Of a stretch of DNA of 5,001 nt, positions 1-5,001 are shown piece after piece. Positions within the stretch are counted from its first letter, which is position 1; each line of letters starts with the position of its first letter. The position numbers were made by a program, and so were the translations under genes. Origin of the DNA: Anaerolineae bacterium (GTDB taxonomy: Bacteria > Chloroflexota > Anaerolineae > 4572-78 > J111); contig JAGRBY010000550.1 in assembly GCA_020433835.1 (NCBI GenBank), positions 1 through 5,001 on the forward strand. The letters run 5' to 3'. Under the pieces are notes generated by a model. That model searched no databases. It worked only from the letters and a program-made list of their open reading frames with translations, and was not told the origin of the DNA.

Positions 1-613
1 TAAGCAAGCTGAAGAAGAAGCCAAAGAATTGGTAAGCCAAATGTGGAAAACCGTAACCCTGCACTGTTTCGAGATGATGTCTGAAGTGACGCAGTGGGGT
101 TTTAAGATGAAGCAGACCACCGGCAGGGCTTTAATACCGCAAACGCGCGATGAACGGCTAACAACGATGACGGCTTACATTTATAAAGAACAAAACCGCC
201 CGGAAGAGGAGCGTTTTGCCAAGCCGGATTTAGCGGCAATTATTATGGTGCGTGATGCGTTAAAAGCCAATGTTACTGCCTATCAAATTGCCAATACACA
301 GCAAAAAAATTATGGTGAGCAGTGTGCGTCATTAATTCAGAGGCTGTCGGATTATTTACAGGCCAGCGCGATTGATATTTTGGCCCGAAATTTTAGTATG
401 AAACTTTCGACTCAATTGCAAAATTGGGGGTTTGAAGTGGCCTTAAAGCGGCGCAAACCGTCGAAAACAAATGACCCGGCCCCGGTTAACGGCACCACCA
501 CCGCAAGTTCGGCTAATGGCTCAACCAACGGCTCAACCAGCACGGCGGTGTCGGCGGAAGGGCAGGCCTCGGCTGATGATAATGATGGTTTACTGTCGTC
601 ACTGACGGATTAG
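1..613 (+). CDS. Unrecognised protein, C-terminal part (5' end outside window)
   Basis: The frame is open from the first base to a TAG at 611-613, giving about 203 visible residues. A TTG at 29 could serve as a start, but the codons before it (K-Q-A-E-E-E-A-K-E) continue the same charged helical pattern and no ribosome site is visible, so this is most likely the end of a longer protein. The body (to about base 465) looks mostly helical, rich in Gln, Ala, Lys and Glu, with no signal peptide, membrane segment or catalytic motif that I recognise. The last ~45 residues are a low-complexity tail of Ser, Thr, Asn, Gly and Ala ending in an acidic stretch (A-D-D-N-D-G), probably disordered. The gene converges on the heme oxygenase gene and does not appear to belong to the light-sensing operon. 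Function is unknown; the coding call rests on the long open frame and ordinary composition. Confidence 0.75.
   Translation, partial: KQAEEEAKELVSQMWKTVTLHCFEMMSEVTQWGFKMKQTTGRALIPQTRDERLTTMTAYIYKEQNRPEEERFAKPDLAAIIMVRDALKANVTAYQIANTQQKNYGEQCASLIQRLSDYLQASAIDILARNFSMKLSTQLQNWGFEVALKRRKPSKTNDPAPVNGTTTASSANGSTNGSTSTAVSAEGQASADDNDGLLSSLTD
515..538 (+). repeat. 12-bp tandem duplication encoding N-G-S-T twice
   Basis: Two adjacent 12-bp units (515-526 and 527-538) read AATGGCTCAACC and AACGGCTCAACC and differ at one base. They encode Asn-Gly-Ser-Thr twice inside the low-complexity tail of the plus-strand gene. This looks like replication-slippage expansion of a disordered linker. Confidence 0.6.
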
Positions 614-653
614 GGGCAGTTTCTGTTGACATGGGCCTAAAGATGGTCGTAGA

Positions 654-751
654 TGTCATTTCGAGCGACGATAGGAGCGAGAAATCCCCGACAACGCGCA
701 GTTGCAATCGAAGTTGGGGGGATTTCTCCTCGCAGGCTCGTCGAAATGACA
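654..751. repeat. Imperfect inverted repeat, REP/MITE-like intergenic element
   Basis: The outer arms TGTCATTTCGA (654-664) and TCGAAATGACA (741-751) are perfect complements. An inner pair, GAGAAATCCCC (679-689) and GGGGATTTCTC (718-728), is also perfectly complementary, and the stretches between the pairs (14 and 12 bases) are G/C-rich and only partly complementary. The whole can fold into a long hairpin with a ~28-base centre. Palindromes of the TGTCATTTCGAG...GAAATC type are, from general knowledge, common dispersed intergenic repeats in several bacterial phyla. It has no coding capacity. It sits between two convergent genes, where it could also act as a bidirectional transcription end. 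Confidence 0.8.
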
Positions 752-778
752 TGAAAAATCGAAATGCCAACACGACCT

Positions 779-797
779 AAAAAGTGACTGTCACTTT
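779..797 (-). terminator. Candidate weak hairpin terminator of the light-sensing operon
   Basis: Bases 781-788 (AAAGTGAC) and 790-797 (GTCACTTT) form a perfect inverted repeat around one base. Read on the minus strand this gives a 7-bp stem with a three-base CAG loop, followed by a run of five T (779-783) that partly belongs to the stem. It overlaps the TGA stop of the heme oxygenase gene (791-793). The stem is AT-rich and short and the T run is brief, so it would be a weak intrinsic terminator; the larger inverted repeat downstream may do the real work. Confidence 0.35.
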
Positions 798-1387
798 GGC
801 GTAGCAGCCATAAGTAGCCGCCGATAAACATCAAACGTGTTTTGCGCGGCGGTAATGATGGCATCGGCCTGATCGATTGGGTCGGTTAGCTCGATGACGG
901 CCTGGCAGAAGGTAAGCCATAAAGCGCGGGTGTTTTGGCCGCATAAGTGATAGTAATGAAACGGAGCAGCTCGATTGAGCTGCTTGTTTCTTTTTAAAGC
1001 CTTAAAGATAACGGCTCCGCCCAAAGTTGAGCCTTCCATAACATACATCGCGCCCAAGGCCTGGGGAATGGTCTGCAGGCACAGATCGACCGGGCAAACG
1101 GGCGCACAATTGAGGTTGAGTTGGGTTACATCGTGCTGAAGGGCGGCCAGCCGGCGGCGGTGGGGCAATTGCAGGCGCTCGGCCTCTAAACCGAATATTT
1201 GCGGCAGTTGGGGTTCAATCAGGCGGTGAGCGTGGTAATGGGTTAAAATGAGGCGGTGGTAGTGGGTTAGGCTTAGGGTCTGATTAAGGATGGTATCGGC
1301 CTGGGCTAATTGCTCTACGGTTTGGTGATGCCGGGCCGTTTCGTGCTTTAAACGGTCTAAAATAGAGGGCTGTGTTGGTTTAGTCAA
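791..1387 (-). CDS. bphO: Biliverdin-producing heme oxygenase (BphO type)
   Basis: A 198-residue protein, close to the usual size of bacterial heme oxygenases. It should open heme to biliverdin, CO and iron using O2 and a reductant, in the cytoplasm. Near the N-terminus the pattern L13-K14-x-x-T17-x-x-x-H21-x-x-x-E25 matches the family's proximal heme-ligand helix, so H21 is the likely axial ligand. Residues 112-127 (G-A-M-Y-V-M-E-G-S-T-L-G-G-A-V-I) are the BphO-type distal-helix signature with flexible glycines G123-G124. The start is TTG at 1385-1387, inside an 8-base overlap (TTGACTAA) with the stop of the preceding receiver gene; no ATG lies nearby before the ligand helix, and a weak AGAAG lies just upstream. 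Last gene of the phytochrome cluster, so it most likely supplies the chromophore. A His-rich stretch (H42, H44, H50, H52, H54) and Cys94, Cys98, Cys103 are noticeable. Family assignment is firm; the exact bilin isomer is inferred. Confidence 0.92.
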   Translation of the reverse strand: MTKPTQPSILDRLKHETARHHQTVEQLAQADTILNQTLSLTHYHRLILTHYHAHRLIEPQLPQIFGLEAERLQLPHRRRLAALQHDVTQLNLNCAPVCPVDLCLQTIPQALGAMYVMEGSTLGGAVIFKALKRNKQLNRAAPFHYYHLCGQNTRALWLTFCQAVIELTDPIDQADAIITAAQNTFDVYRRLLMAATPK

Positions 1388-1943
1388 TGTCTTCTTTTGA
1401 TTTGTTTTGCAAATACTCTTTGATAACGTCCATTTCTTGGGCCATGGCGGCTATTTCGCGCTGATATTGGGCAATTTCATACTGTTGTTGCAGCATTTGC
1501 TGATGGATGCGATGCAATTTTACGGCCATTTTTTGGCGGATGGAGTAGCCTGATAAAATCTCTAGAATGATATTGGGTAAGCGGTTGAGATGTTTTTTTA
1601 AGACAAAGCCGGACGCGCCGCCGATAATAGTTTGCGCTGCCAACTCTTCATTATCCAGCGTGCCGGTTATAAACACAAAAGGAATGCCGGGTAACTGCTG
1701 TTGCGCTACTTGCAAAGCTTCATCCCCCATAAATTGGGACACAAGATAATCGGCTAAAATTAAATCCGGGTCGAACTCGATTAAAGCGTGTGCAAAATCG
1801 GGGCCGTTATCAACCACGCGAAACTGATAAGTCTGCAGCACTTTTTTTACCTGTCGCTCAATGAGGACAGCATCCTCTGGTACATCTTCTAAAAGCAAAA
1901 CATGCAGGGGGTGCTGCTTAAGCGAATTGGTTTGGCTCGTCAT
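1380..1943 (-). CDS. Receiver protein A with C-terminal coiled coil (no output domain)
   Basis: A 187-residue protein. Residues ~13-130 are a CheY-like receiver: acidic pair E19-D20, phosphoacceptor D65 in D-L-I-L-A-D-Y, switch Thr T93 in the F-I-T-G-T strand, and conserved Lys K116 in F-V-L-K-K. Residues ~135-182 form a Gln-rich amphipathic helix, likely a coiled coil, and no DNA-binding or enzymatic domain follows. Receivers A, B and C align without gaps: the Asp-to-Asp and Asp-to-Lys spacings are 45 and 51 residues in all three. This copy is the most divergent around the acceptor loop (S69-Q70-F71 in place of the usual Pro). The ATG at 1941-1943 is preceded only by a weak purine stretch (AGAAAG) about 11 bases away. 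It lies 17 bases after receiver B and overlaps heme oxygenase by 8 bases, so the two are probably translationally coupled. Presumed phosphate donor: the upstream phytochrome kinase (inference). Confidence 0.9.
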   Translation of the reverse strand: MTSQTNSLKQHPLHVLLLEDVPEDAVLIERQVKKVLQTYQFRVVDNGPDFAHALIEFDPDLILADYLVSQFMGDEALQVAQQQLPGIPFVFITGTLDNEELAAQTIIGGASGFVLKKHLNRLPNIILEILSGYSIRQKMAVKLHRIHQQMLQQQYEIAQYQREIAAMAQEMDVIKEYLQNKSKEDID

Positions 1944-1960
1944 TTTTTTGTTTCTTTCTG

Positions 1961-2518
1961 TTACTTGCGATGGTTTTTAGCCTTCAATCGTTCTTGTAGT
2001 TGCTGCAGCTTGAGGCGCATTTCCTCTAATTTGGTGTGATATAGGGATATCTCTTTTTGTTGTTGTTGTACTTTTTCCTGCAGCTGATGCAGCGATGTTT
2101 GCGTTTTTAAGTATATTGACGCGTTGTTGGCCATTGCCTGGGTAATAACCTGCGGCAGTCGCCTTAAATTTTTCTTCAAAACAAAGCCGGACGCCCCATT
2201 TAAGATGGTATGCGCCGCCAGTTCTTCATCTTCCATGGTTCCGGTTACAAATACAAAGGGAATGTGAGGAACCCGGCTTTGGGCTAGCCATAGAGATTGA
2301 TCACCATTAAACAACGGTACTTTGTAATCAGCCAAAATTAAATCGGGCTTAAACTTGTCGAGTGCCTCTTCAAAATCATCTCGATTATTGACAACACTAA
2401 GTTGATAGGTCTGCACTATTTGCTCAATCTCATAGGCAATAAGTTCGGCATCCCGCGGCACGTCTTCTAAAAGCAAAATGCGCAGTGGGCGTTGAGTGTG
2501 TGAAGGGGTTTGGCTCAT
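1961..2518 (-). CDS. Receiver protein B with C-terminal coiled coil (no output domain)
   Basis: A 185-residue protein when started at the ATG at 2516-2518. That start is chosen because a strong AGGAG (2524-2528) sits five bases before it and because it gives the same N-terminal length as its paralogues; the frame is open further up to a GTG at 2572, which has no such support. Receiver domain ~residues 11-128: E18-D19 acidic pair, phosphoacceptor D64, switch T92 in F-V-T-G-T, Lys K115. Residues ~140-182 are a Gln/Lys/Glu/Leu-rich helix with heptad-like spacing, predicted coiled coil, carrying the Q-Q-x-x-E-x-x-x-Y pattern shared with A and C. No effector domain. It is separated from receiver C by a 68-base gap that has its own ribosome site but no convincing promoter. 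Probable role: phospho-dependent partner or phosphate sink in the phytochrome relay (inference). Confidence 0.92.
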   Translation of the reverse strand: MSQTPSHTQRPLRILLLEDVPRDAELIAYEIEQIVQTYQLSVVNNRDDFEEALDKFKPDLILADYKVPLFNGDQSLWLAQSRVPHIPFVFVTGTMEDEELAAHTILNGASGFVLKKNLRRLPQVITQAMANNASIYLKTQTSLHQLQEKVQQQQKEISLYHTKLEEMRLKLQQLQERLKAKNHRK

Positions 2519-2523
2519 AGTTG

Positions 2524-2528
2524 CTCCT
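2524..2528 (-). promoter_or_regulatory. Shine-Dalgarno AGGAG deciding the start of receiver B
   Basis: On the minus strand the sequence reads AGGAG-CAACT-ATG, an ideal motif and five-base spacing for the ATG at 2516-2518. It is the only strong ribosome site among the genes whose starts are visible here, which suggests receiver B is translated more efficiently or independently of its neighbours. Confidence 0.75.
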
Positions 2529-2586
2529 GTTTTTGAAAACTCGGTGATGGTTAGGCTTTTGGTTACTGTCACCCTCGATAGCTGTT

Positions 2587-3171
2587 TTATTCGTCTGCTG
2601 CGTCTTGTTTAGCGTTTAGTTGGGTTTGCAGTGCTTCCAACTGCTTGTGCATGGCCAATAGGTTTTTTTTATATTGTACCAGTTCATGGGTTTGTTGTTC
2701 CACCTGGTTTTGCAGTTGGGATAGCTGCTGTTCGTCTTTGTGCTGTTTAGCAGCCAATTCGAGCGCTTGATTCATTACATCCGACAGTCGCCCCAAATTT
2801 CGTTTTAGCAGAAAGCCGGATGCGCCGTCGATAATGGTTTGGGCCGCCATTTCTTCATCATCAATCGTGCCGGTTACAAAGACAAAGGGGATTTGGGGTG
2901 CTTGTGATTGCACAATAGTGAGCGCGTCGCTGCCTCTAAAGCGGGGCAAAAGATAATCAGACAAAATTAAATTGGGCTTGAAATTGTTGAGCGCTTCTTC
3001 AAAGTCGTCTTGATTTTTCACAACGTGAAGTTTGTAATCCGGTATGGTTTTTTTTATCTCGCGTTCGATGAGTTTTATATCCTCGTTCAAATCTTCTAAA
3101 AGGAGAATGCGAAGGGGGTGTTGGTTATTTGTTTCTAATGGATTCATACTTTGTTTGACCTTATTATACAT
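2587..3171 (-). CDS. Receiver protein C with C-terminal coiled coil (no output domain)
   Basis: A 194-residue protein from the ATG at 3169-3171. Receiver ~residues 19-136: acidic pair E26-D27, phosphoacceptor D72 in N-L-I-L-S-D-Y, switch T100 in F-V-T-G-T, Lys K123. Residues ~143-190 are a Gln-rich heptad-like helix, probable coiled coil, and no output domain follows. The chosen ATG overlaps the stop of the Rcp-like gene in ATGTATAA, favouring coupled translation. A second ATG at 3145-3147 (residue 9) has AAGG 11 bases upstream and would give the same N-terminal length as receivers A and B, so the true product may be 186 residues. It resembles receiver B most closely: both carry the block D-D-F-E-E-A-L followed by F-K-P. 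It is the first of the three paralogues after the kinase/Rcp pair. Receiver identity is firm; the role is inferred from context. Confidence 0.9.
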   Translation of the reverse strand: MYNKVKQSMNPLETNNQHPLRILLLEDLNEDIKLIEREIKKTIPDYKLHVVKNQDDFEEALNNFKPNLILSDYLLPRFRGSDALTIVQSQAPQIPFVFVTGTIDDEEMAAQTIIDGASGFLLKRNLGRLSDVMNQALELAAKQHKDEQQLSQLQNQVEQQTHELVQYKKNLLAMHKQLEALQTQLNAKQDAADE

Positions 3172-3598
3172 ATTTTTGGGTATTATGCCGTAGCCAGTAT
3201 TGACCTAATGTTTGCAGTAGCTCTTTAAAGTGATTGTATTTTACCGGTTTTACCAAATAGCTGTTGGCACCTAATCGGTAAGCCTCGGCAACGTCACGCT
3301 CTTGGGCTGAAGCGCTAAGGATGATGATGGGAATGGCTTTGGTGCGATCATTGGCTTTGAGTTTGGCTAACACATCCAGGCCGTTGATTTTGGGCAGTTT
3401 GATATCTAAGAGAATGATTTTAGGCCACATATCGGGGAAGGGGTTGGTACGGAAAAAGAAATCTAGGGCGGCTGCGCCATTATTTAGTTGGTGATAGTTG
3501 GTTGTAATGCCCTCTTTTTCAAGAACGCGAGCCACAAGCTTAGCCTCGTCAATATTGTCTTCAATGTGGAGGATGTCGATGTTTTGTTTTTGGTTCAT
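3164..3598 (-). CDS. Rcp1/CheY-like single-domain response regulator
   Basis: A 144-residue protein that is a receiver domain only. Acidic residues E13-D14, phosphoacceptor D65 in I-I-L-L-D-I-K-L-P, switch S95 in I-I-I-L-S-A-S, and K117-P118 near the end. The acceptor loop with K-L-P-x-x-N-G and the segment L45-D46-F47-F48 preceding it resemble Rcp1, the regulator paired with cyanobacterial phytochrome Cph1. Position next after the phytochrome kinase supports a cognate partner role: it should take phosphate from the kinase His and act by dimerisation or partner binding. It is clearly a different subfamily from receivers A-C, which have a TGT switch strand and coiled-coil tails. The ATG at 3596-3598 has no clear ribosome site upstream. 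Its stop overlaps the start of receiver C by eight bases. Subfamily is judged by eye and not by a search. Confidence 0.92.
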   Translation of the reverse strand: MNQKQNIDILHIEDNIDEAKLVARVLEKEGITTNYHQLNNGAAALDFFFRTNPFPDMWPKIILLDIKLPKINGLDVLAKLKANDRTKAIPIIILSASAQERDVAEAYRLGANSYLVKPVKYNHFKELLQTLGQYWLRHNTQKYV

Positions 3599-3629
3599 GG
3601 TTTGATTGTGAAAAAAATCGCCTCGCTTT

Positions 3630-3635
3630 ATTATA
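3630..3635 (-). promoter_or_regulatory. Possible -10 element (TATAAT) before the Rcp-like gene
   Basis: The 135-base spacer between the kinase stop (3734) and the Rcp-like start (3598) is long for this otherwise tight cluster. On the minus strand it contains a perfect TATAAT about 31 bases before the ATG. No good TTGACA-like -35 lies 16-18 bases further upstream, and the region is AT-rich, so the match could be chance. If real, the regulators and heme oxygenase could be transcribed separately from the kinase. Confidence 0.22.
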
Positions 3636-3733
3636 ATAATTTGTGGATCACCTTTATGTTCGCCTACAGTGGTTTTTATTTTCGATGATGATGTGAGGGG
3701 GGCGCATCAACTTCTGTATTTAAATCGGCTGCG

Positions 3734-5001
3734 TTATTCTGCTGCGGCCGGTAGCGGAAAGGCTAGATAAAAGGTGCTGCCTTGTCCCGACCGGCTCTCT
3801 ACCCAAACTCGCCCATGGTGCGACTGAACGATGCGCTTTACCAAGGCCAGCCCAATACCGGTGCCCTCAAATTCGTTTTCATCGGCGTGGAGACGGCTAA
3901 AAACATTGAATATTTCGTCGGCATAGACCATATCAAAACCAATGCCGTTATCAGCGATGGTATAGAGTATTTCGTTGTCTTTCTGTTCGCCGTGTATCTC
4001 AATACGGGGTTGGTCTGCGGGGCGCGTGTATTTGACCGCGTTTGATAAAATATTAAAGAAAAGTTGTTGAATAAGCGGATAATCGCCGTACAGCGGGGGG
4101 AGAGGCCCGACCTCAAACGCAATCGTGCATTTTTTTTCAACCTCTTGGAAAAACTCGATAAGTTCGTCGATAATGGGTGTAAGATCGAGCTGATTATGAA
4201 TTTTTTTGGCGCGGCCCACGCGCGAGTAGGATAAAATATCTTCGATTAATTGGTTCATTTTGGCCGCGTTTTTGGTGATAACGTTTAAAACCTGTTGGGC
4301 TTCTTCCTCCAATTGATCTTCATAATCTTCCAGCAATATTTCCGCATAGCTGTCGATAAGGCGCAGCGGCGAACGAAGATCGTGCGAAATCGAGTAGCTG
4401 AAGGCATCTAATTCTTCGTTTGCTTTTTGTAACTGCGTATTGATCGACTCAATCTGGCGGGTATATTGCACCATAATGTTGGTAATGTGCTCGCGCAGCT
4501 TTTGGGCGGCGCTGCGTTCGGCCGGGTGCCAGGGCAGCGATTTGCCGTGAACAATTTCTGTCCACTGTTTAAATGATTTGCGGGGGCTAAGGCGCAGGCC
4601 GTCGGCTTTAACCGTAACTGCTTTTTTGGGGTTGCCGGCCCATGTTACGGTTTGAACCTTTTCCGGTTTAAACCACAACAGCCAATCGCCGGTAAGGTTT
4701 GATATCGGCAGCGCCAACAGACCGGCTGCGGTGTTGATATCGGCCTGGGCCGGTGGATAAACGGTGGAAAGTTGGTTGGTATAGTAAAGTTGGTTATTGT
4801 TACGTTCGTTGAGCCAGTCAATTACATCTAAAATTCGGTTGGCAGTGGGTGTTTGTCCGTGTAAAATAAGACGCTTGTTAAAGTAGATGGCTGCGCCGCT
4901 ACTTTCGTTAAGATCAAGCAGCGTAACCGGATATGCGCTCAAACCGGCGACAATATCTAAAGAGCGGCTCATTTGTTCTTGCAAAACTTCATTAACAGCC
5001 G
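3734..5001 (-). CDS. bphP: Bacteriophytochrome sensor histidine kinase, C-terminal part (5' end outside window)
   Basis: The frame runs from TAA at 3734-3736 through the window edge, with 421 full codons visible. The TTG at 4982-4984 is not a credible start because phytochrome sequence is already under way there. Numbering from that TTG: residues 1-150 are the PHY domain, with all three tongue signatures, W115-A-G117, P134-R-K-S-F138 and W141-x-E143. Residues ~160-193 form a linker helix; HisKA follows with phospho-acceptor H201 in S-H-D-L-R-S-P; the ATPase domain has N-box N311/N315, G1 D345-N-G-I-G349, F-box near F359-F362 and G2 G374-T-G-I-G-L379. The protein ends right after the ATPase, with no fused receiver, which fits the separate Rcp-like regulator downstream. 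The missing upstream half should hold the PAS and GAF domains and the bilin-binding Cys. Cytosolic: no membrane segment in the visible part. Likely a light-switched autokinase; chromophore type cannot be read here. Confidence 0.95.
   Translation of the reverse strand, partial: AVNEVLQEQMSRSLDIVAGLSAYPVTLLDLNESSGAAIYFNKRLILHGQTPTANRILDVIDWLNERNNNQLYYTNQLSTVYPPAQADINTAAGLLALPISNLTGDWLLWFKPEKVQTVTWAGNPKKAVTVKADGLRLSPRKSFKQWTEIVHGKSLPWHPAERSAAQKLREHITNIMVQYTRQIESINTQLQKANEELDAFSYSISHDLRSPLRLIDSYAEILLEDYEDQLEEEAQQVLNVITKNAAKMNQLIEDILSYSRVGRAKKIHNQLDLTPIIDELIEFFQEVEKKCTIAFEVGPLPPLYGDYPLIQQLFFNILSNAVKYTRPADQPRIEIHGEQKDNEILYTIADNGIGFDMVYADEIFNVFSRLHADENEFEGTGIGLALVKRIVQSHHGRVWVESRSGQGSTFYLAFPLPAAAE

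What the first reader, a model, noticed from the sequence alone, without database searches (positions are those of the whole stretch)
791..5001. Self-contained light-sensing cluster: phytochrome kinase, four receivers and chromophore enzyme
The frame ending at 3734 has all three PHY tongue signatures (WAG, PRxSF, WxE) plus complete HisKA and ATPase motifs, and the same strand continues to a BphO-type heme oxygenase. Phytochrome-Rcp and phytochrome-BphO pairs are established arrangements; a cluster holding both ends with three extra receivers between them is not one I recognise.
Basis: partly seen in the sequence, partly recalled or inferred. Interest (0 to 1): 0.75.

Follow-up and report, generated by a model that had tools for sequence, protein, structure and literature searches.

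The report
Light-sensor operon with tripled receivers
A red-light sensing gene cluster of a known general kind, in which one signal-receiving protein has been copied three times and which was probably shared between two distant groups of bacteria; how its signal leaves the cluster is unknown.

Summary
The minus strand carries the PHY-HisKA-HATPase end of a bacteriophytochrome, an Rcp/BphR-type receiver, three more output-less receivers and a heme oxygenase. The PAS-GAF part lies outside the window. A syntenic Anaerolineae contig (L001) has the same six genes in the same order and a complete phytochrome with PAS, GAF and the N-terminal Cys. The surprise is smaller than claimed: bphO-bphP-bphR (Deinococcus) and heme oxygenase-BphP-CheY-hybrid kinase (Ramlibacter) are published. 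BphP-(Rcp)-one short receiver-heme oxygenase occurs at 16 of 32 phytochromes sampled in Saprospiraceae (Bacteroidota), 9 with Rcp, at 0 of 21 other Chloroflexota loci fetched and 0 of 40 other Bacteroidota loci fetched. Rcp and receiver trees side with Saprospiraceae and the BphP tree leans that way, so transfer between phyla is likely. Special here are the tripling of the short receiver and its tail, a 71-residue helix with heptad pattern. Its nearest solved relative is the receiver of LvrB, a receiver-controlled kinase; here the kinase is absent. Likely role: light-controlled phosphorylation of four receivers, three acting by dimerisation or as adaptors. That step is inferred.

The parts
3734..4999 (-). 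3' part of a bacteriophytochrome histidine kinase gene (bphP): PHY, HisKA, HATPase_c; 5' part (PAS, GAF) lies beyond the window
   Evidence: Pfam; 72% identical over 421 aa to the 746-aa BphP of L001, which has PAS_2, GAF, PHY, HisKA, HATPase_c
4556..4642 (-). PHY tongue motifs: WAG 4642-4634, PRKSF 4585-4571, WTE 4564-4556
   Evidence: motif positions; also present in L001
4382..4384 (-). phospho-acceptor His codon of the H-box (SHDLR)
   Evidence: motif, HisKA
3164..3598 (-). Rcp/BphR-type single-domain response regulator, 144 aa; acceptor Asp codon 3406-3404
   Evidence: Pfam; PDB sequence hits include RcpB 1k66, Rcp1 1jlk/1i3c and D. radiodurans regulator 6xvu; 89% identical to L001, dN/dS 0.08
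2587..3171 (-). RR1: LvrB-type receiver plus C-terminal helix with heptad pattern, no output domain (likely start ATG at 3147); acceptor Asp codon 2958-2956
   Evidence: Pfam; AF2 monomer model mean pLDDT 91.6, helix residues 115-185; heptad test p=0.001
1961..2572 (-). RR2: second receiver paralogue of the same kind (likely start ATG at 2518); acceptor Asp codon 2329-2327
   Evidence: Pfam; pair with its L001 counterpart SH-aLRT 98; heptad test p=0.0005
1380..1943 (-). RR3: third receiver paralogue; acceptor Asp codon 1751-1749; its end overlaps the start of the heme oxygenase gene by 8 bases
   Evidence: Pfam; group with its L001 counterpart SH-aLRT 97; heptad test p=0.0035; same overlap in L001
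791..1387 (-). biliverdin-forming heme oxygenase (bphO-like), TTG start
   Evidence: Pfam PF01126; 79% identical to L001 HO
2..613 (+). 3' part of a convergent gene of unknown function that flanks the cluster in both contigs (294 aa in L001)
   Evidence: no Pfam or NCBIfam match in the window copy, no Pfam match in the L001 copy; 77% identical to L001

Best explanation
It is a bacteriophytochrome two-component operon, bphP-rcp-rr1-rr2-rr3-bphO, of an Anaerolineae-like bacterium. BphO makes biliverdin from heme, which binds the Cys in the N-terminal PAS region of BphP. Red/far-red light switches BphP between kinase and phosphatase states, and BphP sets the phosphorylation of Rcp and of the three tailed receivers. 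Those three share descent with the short receiver of Saprospiraceae phytochrome operons and, further back, with the receivers of LvrB-type receiver-controlled kinases. They lack the kinase, so phosphorylation probably acts through dimerisation of the helical tails (homo- or heterodimers) and binding of partners encoded elsewhere. The operon was probably acquired horizontally, and the short receiver was tripled before the window and L001 lineages split. Shown by sequence: gene content, order, motifs, purifying selection, receiver phylogeny. Inferred: light response, phosphotransfer, dimer switch, direction of transfer.
For: Domains. Identical order in L001. dN/dS: BphP 0.18, Rcp 0.08, RR1-3 0.37/0.28/0.30, HO 0.27. 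The N-terminal Cys of L001 aligns with a Cys in the three solved bacteriophytochromes printed. BphP-Rcp-short RR-HO at 9 and BphP-short RR-HO at 7 of 32 sampled Saprospiraceae BphPs; 0 of 40 other Bacteroidota loci; 0 of 21 other Chloroflexota loci. Short-receiver clade SH-aLRT 98, three window/L001 groups at 97, 98, 97. Rcp: a 97/93 branch puts the query with 12 Saprospiraceae rows. Query BphP held with the 22 Chloroflexota rows: AU p 0.017. LvrB gives the top PDB fold hits and the only PDB sequence hit at 1e-15.
Against: Query BphP plus 22 Saprospiraceae rows has support 72/98, not starred, and that set was named after I had seen the tree, leaving out 9 divergent Saprospiraceae rows. The HO tree is unresolved. 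The receiver tree is a quick tree on 133 columns and 178 rows, whose rows were chosen with an HMM made from short receivers; 7 other short frames fall among the fused receivers, so loss of the kinase part may be repeated. Of 19 Saprospiraceae receivers, 14 were tested for the heptad pattern and fail it (p 0.14-1.0); 5 were skipped because the script's K motif was not found. So kinship rests on the receiver domain. The AF2 model is a monomer. No biochemical data; D. radiodurans BphP is reported to act as a phosphatase without kinase activity (passages).
Confidence: 0.6

Rival explanations
1. RR1-3 are phosphate sinks that tune or insulate the BphP-Rcp pair: they take phosphate from BphP and have no partner of their own; the output runs through Rcp alone.
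For: No output domain in any of the three; all phosphorylation residues kept; Rcp is the most conserved protein (89%, dN/dS 0.08) while RR1-3 evolve faster (0.28-0.37).
Against: A sink needs no 71-residue helix; the heptad pattern is kept in all six tails of window and L001.
Confidence: 0.2
2. The cluster descends vertically within Chloroflexota from BphP-Rcp-(receiver-kinase) operons, the kinase part being lost and the receiver tripled in place; similarity to Saprospiraceae operons is convergence.
For: Other Chloroflexota have BphP-Rcp-long receiver protein at 13 of 21 fetched loci; the HO tree is unresolved and the BphP placement is not starred; short receivers also occur here and there among fused ones.
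Against: BphP with Chloroflexota: AU p 0.017; Rcp and receiver trees place the query with Bacteroidota proteins; phytochromes in only 2 of 396 genomes of the class; where heme oxygenase was seen near bphP in the 21 other Chloroflexota loci it lies before bphP (4 of 4).
Confidence: 0.15
3. Ordinary bphP-rcp-bphO operon with decaying tandem copies of a receiver that have no present role.
For: RR1-3 are the least conserved members.
Against: All three keep the phosphorylation residues and reading frames in both contigs, with dN/dS 0.28-0.37 at dS 0.69-0.92 (YN00).
Confidence: 0.05

Closest known systems
Deinococcus bphO-bphP-bphR operon (PMC8363230, passages)
   Same: Phytochrome kinase, cognate receiver and heme oxygenase in one operon; nine of 13 bph operons in that paper
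   Different: Heme oxygenase gene first; one receiver gene only
Ramlibacter tataouinensis hmuO-bphP1-cheY-atypical hybrid kinase putative operon (PMC6848086, passages)
   Same: Phytochrome, CheY-type receiver, a second two-component protein and heme oxygenase together
   Different: The second protein is called an atypical hybrid kinase; heme oxygenase gene numbered before bphP1; no tripling
Saprospiraceae BphP-(Rcp)-short receiver-HO operons found here
   Same: Same order and orientation; receiver in the same clade
   Different: One short receiver between BphP and HO in all 16, never three; 14 Saprospiraceae tails tested lack the heptad pattern and align as helix, loop, helix by my reading
LvrB, receiver-controlled histidine kinase of Leptospira (8vc9; PMC13269768, passages)
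   Same: Receiver sequence and fold; helix continuing from alpha5, which in LvrB forms a coiled coil on phosphorylation
   Different: LvrB has DHp and CA domains; RR1-3 end after the helix
Agrobacterium agp1-agR-exsG cluster (PMC1552090, passages)
   Same: Phytochrome with a receiver and a further two-component protein in one operon
   Different: The further protein is a histidine kinase; the passages shown name no heme oxygenase in it

Membership tests
Bacteriophytochrome histidine kinase (BphP) | PHY domain with tongue motifs | tested here: met
   PF00360 E 4e-55; motifs
Bacteriophytochrome histidine kinase (BphP) | HisKA and HATPase_c with H, N, G1, G2 motifs | tested here: met
Bacteriophytochrome histidine kinase (BphP) | N-terminal PAS with biliverdin Cys and GAF | tested here: inconclusive
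   outside the window; met in the syntenic relative L001 (PAS_2, GAF; Cys aligned)
Bacteriophytochrome histidine kinase (BphP) | binds biliverdin and photoconverts | not testable with these tools
   needs protein
bphO-bphP-bphR type operon | BphP, single-domain receiver and heme oxygenase co-directional and close together | tested here: met
   same in L001
bphO-bphP-bphR type operon | co-transcription | not testable with these tools
   only order, spacing and the RR3/HO overlap were seen
Rcp1/BphR single-domain receivers | CheY-like receiver alone, related to solved phytochrome regulators | tested here: met
   RcpB, Rcp1 (two), D. radiodurans regulator and RcpA among the first 11 rows; the two best rows (5brj, 5ic5) are named only response regulators
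LvrB-type receiver-controlled histidine kinase | receiver of LvrB type | tested here: met
   (the NCBIfam score is far below that model's full-length cut-off)
LvrB-type receiver-controlled histidine kinase | DHp and CA kinase domains after the helix | tested here: not met
   no kinase domain in RR1-3; so not a member, only a relative of its receiver part
Heme oxygenase | PF01126 above cut-off | tested here: met
   53 bits against cut-off 23

The most novel reading that the evidence does not exclude
The three kinase-less tailed receivers form a phosphorylation-gated set of homo- and heterodimers fed by one photoreceptor, so that a single light input is spread over several partner proteins; this would be a phytochrome output without a DNA-binding, enzymatic or kinase domain, made by tripling the receiver arm of a receiver-controlled kinase after transfer of the operon between phyla.
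Probability: 0.2. Interest if true: 0.6.

Novelty: new variant of a known kind. Interest (0 to 1): 0.4.

Why it matters
How bacterial phytochromes pass on their signal is often unclear when their receivers carry no output domain. A short receiver found between bphP and bphO at half of the sampled Saprospiraceae phytochromes, and its tripled heptad-tailed version here, give named candidates for that missing step. The case also shows a light-sensing operon that probably moved between Bacteroidota and Chloroflexota, in a class where phytochromes are rare in the sample (2 of 396 genomes).

Tried and rejected
Dead ends: the first genome-contig scan with the window's BphP fragment found no relative; the second with the receiver alignment did. 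No own genome for the window. Rfam at gathering thresholds: nothing. PDB search with the window's HO found nothing; a Saprospiraceae HO found P. aeruginosa HO 1sk7 weakly. The context of the other Anaerolineae short receivers (P0023-P0029, P0031) and of HO P0008 could not be fetched. In one search (396 genomes of the class, E 1e-25 or better, at most 8 candidates scored per genome) every listed row outside G001 had an open frame of at least 315 aa. In the 120 rows listed the contig lengths of P0023-P0026, P0029 and P0031 each occur once, which hints at one short receiver per contig there; but the table gives only the longest contig of a cluster, and L001's own length occurs only twice although it has three, so this is weak. 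The AU test of query with L083 did not finish and was not repeated. Promoter-like sites: 15 found, 7.4 expected; terminator-like 6, 7.8 expected; no use was made of them.

Considered and rejected: that the three receivers are independent imports (each groups with its own L001 counterpart, and all lie in one subclade with P0023/P0024, support 86); that they carry hidden output domains (none in Pfam; AF2 gives a single helix for RR1); that HKST-UBA12 is shown to come from the Shatin sludge paper (the string HKST does not occur in its main text; the link is my guess).
Full report
WHAT IS THERE. The window's minus strand reads, 5' to 3': BphP fragment (3734-4999), Rcp-like receiver (3164-3598), three receivers with helical tails (2587-3171, 1961-2572, 1380-1943) and heme oxygenase (791-1387); a convergent gene of unknown function ends at 613. 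Pfam supports the six assignments above its cut-offs. NCBIfam gives, as best match for each of the three tailed receivers, the receiver part of the LvrB model (76, 82 and 94 bits, far below that model's full-length cut-off of 500). Tongue and kinase motifs and the receiver phosphorylation residues are intact.

CLOSE RELATIVE. A genome-contig scan with an alignment of the receivers returned L001, a 7,341-base contig titled Anaerolineae bacterium isolate HKST-UBA12. It holds the same six genes in the same order plus the same convergent neighbour. Its BphP is complete: PAS_2, GAF, PHY, HisKA, HATPase_c, 746 aa, and the Cys of its N-terminal CDKEPIH stretch aligns with a Cys in the three solved bacteriophytochromes printed. 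Protein identities window/L001: BphP 72% over the 421 shared residues, Rcp 89%, RR1 64%, RR2 65%, RR3 68%, HO 79%; YN00 dN/dS 0.18, 0.08, 0.37, 0.28, 0.30, 0.27. In both contigs the last receiver gene and the heme oxygenase gene overlap by 8 bases. That the N-terminal Cys carries biliverdin is established for bacteriophytochromes and is stated in passages of PMC8363230 and PMC6848086.

HOW RARE. PHY (PF00360) occurs in 2 of 25 genomes of the order of L001's genome, 2 of 396 of its class and 20 of 400 of its phylum. The second genome of the order (G015) has heme oxygenase directly before bphP; its contig ends inside bphP, so its downstream genes are unseen, but its best match to the receiver alignment is only 6.8e-9, in a long frame. 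In the class, G001 alone gave a short receiver (with the limits told under Tried and rejected).

NEIGHBOURHOODS ELSEWHERE. L002, titled uncultured Saprospiraceae (Bacteroidota), carries BphP-Rcp-short receiver-HO. A search of its family found PHY in 29 of 298 genomes, 32 matches. Nine have BphP-Rcp-short receiver-HO (L002, L165, L166, L174, L175, L176, L177, L186, L187). Seven have BphP-short receiver-HO (L167, L168, L171, L173, L181, L184, L185). Two have two short receivers before bphP and Rcp-HO after it (L170, L172). The other 14 show no short receiver in the tabulated stretch; four of these (L188, L190, L192, L193) have under 1 kb of contig downstream. None of the 32 has more than one short receiver between BphP and HO. 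For the rest of Bacteroidota, one search found PHY in 40 of 395 genomes, 48 rows. I fetched 40 of the 48 rows; left out were six rows of four genomes already in the family set (G397, G403, G477, G566) and two below the family cut-off. A short receiver downstream of BphP occurred in 0 of 40. Of Chloroflexota, 21 loci were fetched from the 25 rows (left out: G001 itself and three fragments of a broken copy on one contig). Rcp adjoins BphP in 19 of 21, a long receiver protein (374-1,149 aa) follows in 14 (13 with Rcp), heme oxygenase lies nearby in 4 and each time before bphP, and a short receiver follows in 0 of 21; L221 and L225 have about 1 kb or less of contig downstream.

A WIDER MODULE. So the pair is widespread. 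The phytochrome cluster here is a version in which the second receiver has no output domain.

ORIGIN. Receiver tree (quick, 133 columns, 178 rows): short receivers of window, L001, other Anaerolineae, Saprospiraceae and some other Bacteroidota form one group of 42 rows (SH-aLRT 98) apart from the rest, which are mostly fused but include 7 other short frames. RR1, RR2 and RR3 each group with their L001 counterpart (97, 98, 97), so the tripling is older than the split. Rcp tree: the query lies with 12 Saprospiraceae rows, against 19 Chloroflexota and 3 other Saprospiraceae rows (97/93). BphP tree of 55 rows: query with 22 Saprospiraceae rows 72/98, not starred, a set named after seeing the tree; holding the query with the 22 Chloroflexota rows costs 24.6 log units, AU p 0.017. 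HO tree: unresolved for the query apart from P0008 as its sister (100/99). Taken with the shared uncommon gene order, horizontal transfer between the phyla is the best reading. The spread in Saprospiraceae (16 of 32) against one genome in the class sample suggests transfer into Anaerolineae, but an unsampled donor of both is not excluded.

TAILS. An AF2 monomer model of RR1 (56-sequence alignment, mean pLDDT 91.6) shows a receiver whose alpha5 runs on as one helix, residues 115-185. A simple heptad test against shuffles gives p 0.0005-0.0035 for all six window/L001 tails. Of 19 Saprospiraceae receivers, 14 were tested and fail (p 0.14-1.0); 5 were skipped because the script's K motif was not found. 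The Saprospiraceae tails align as helix, loop, short helix (my reading, no model). Foldseek's best PDB matches are the six chains of LvrB 8vc9 (33-34% identity, TM 0.62-0.63 on the query), and the profile's only PDB sequence match at 1e-15 is LvrB. PMC13269768 (passages) reports that receiver phosphorylation in LvrB changes the receiver dimer and makes the following helices form a coiled coil. RR1-3 keep the receiver and a longer helix but lack the kinase; the dimer switch proposed for them is an inference from LvrB.

LITERATURE. [quoted passage not shown] radiodurans; same structure in nine of 13 operons; BphP acts there as a light-activated phosphatase), PMC6848086 (putative operon with heme oxygenase, BphP1, cheY and an atypical hybrid kinase whose loss resembles loss of either phytochrome), PMC1552090 (Agp1-AgR-ExsG), PMC4422448 (in 2015 one of 50 sequenced Chloroflexi genomes had a phytochrome gene), PMC13269768, PMC8495973. 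Searches for phytochrome with Saprospiraceae (0 papers), phytochrome with Anaerolineae (3 papers, none on the topic by listing), bacteriophytochrome with Chloroflexi and response regulator (7), and on Bacteroidetes or receiver/heme oxygenase/coiled-coil combinations showed in their listings (titles and abstract starts) no report of this arrangement. The library holds open-licence papers only, and most listed papers were not opened, so this is not proof of absence.

VERDICT. Real, functional-looking, conserved in one relative, and a new variant of a known kind. The tripled receivers with heptad tails and no output domain are the interesting part; their role is untested.

Noticed in passing
window 2-613 (+) and L001 6094-6978 (-): Convergent gene of unknown function (294 aa in L001), no Pfam match, 77% identical between the contigs, dN/dS 0.29.
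   Followed up: partly
window 653-752: Inverted repeat with 12-nt perfect arms 76 nt apart between the heme oxygenase and the convergent gene; L001 has a different inverted repeat with 17-nt arms at 5922-5977.
   Followed up: partly
proteins P0006 and P0004: By eye, P0006 follows the window's heme oxygenase in its first part and the L001 one in its last part; P0004 holds a piece of window RR1 inside another protein. Possibly assembly chimeras, which would mean that the two lineages share a sample.
   Followed up: no
L170, L172: Two short receivers lie before bphP, and Rcp-HO follow it, in two Saprospiraceae genomes: a rearranged version of the operon.
   Followed up: partly
L178 (G403): Two phytochrome genes in tandem with an Rcp between them and heme oxygenase after; the genome has a third phytochrome elsewhere.
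   Followed up: no
L231 (G804): A Chloroflexota phytochrome reading frame broken into three pieces, beside an Rcp-like frame; fragments of a second copy are on another contig.
   Followed up: no
rows such as P0030, P0035: Proteins of 318 aa with two receivers of this kind in tandem, also labelled PF04069 in the precomputed domains; the label looks doubtful.
   Followed up: no
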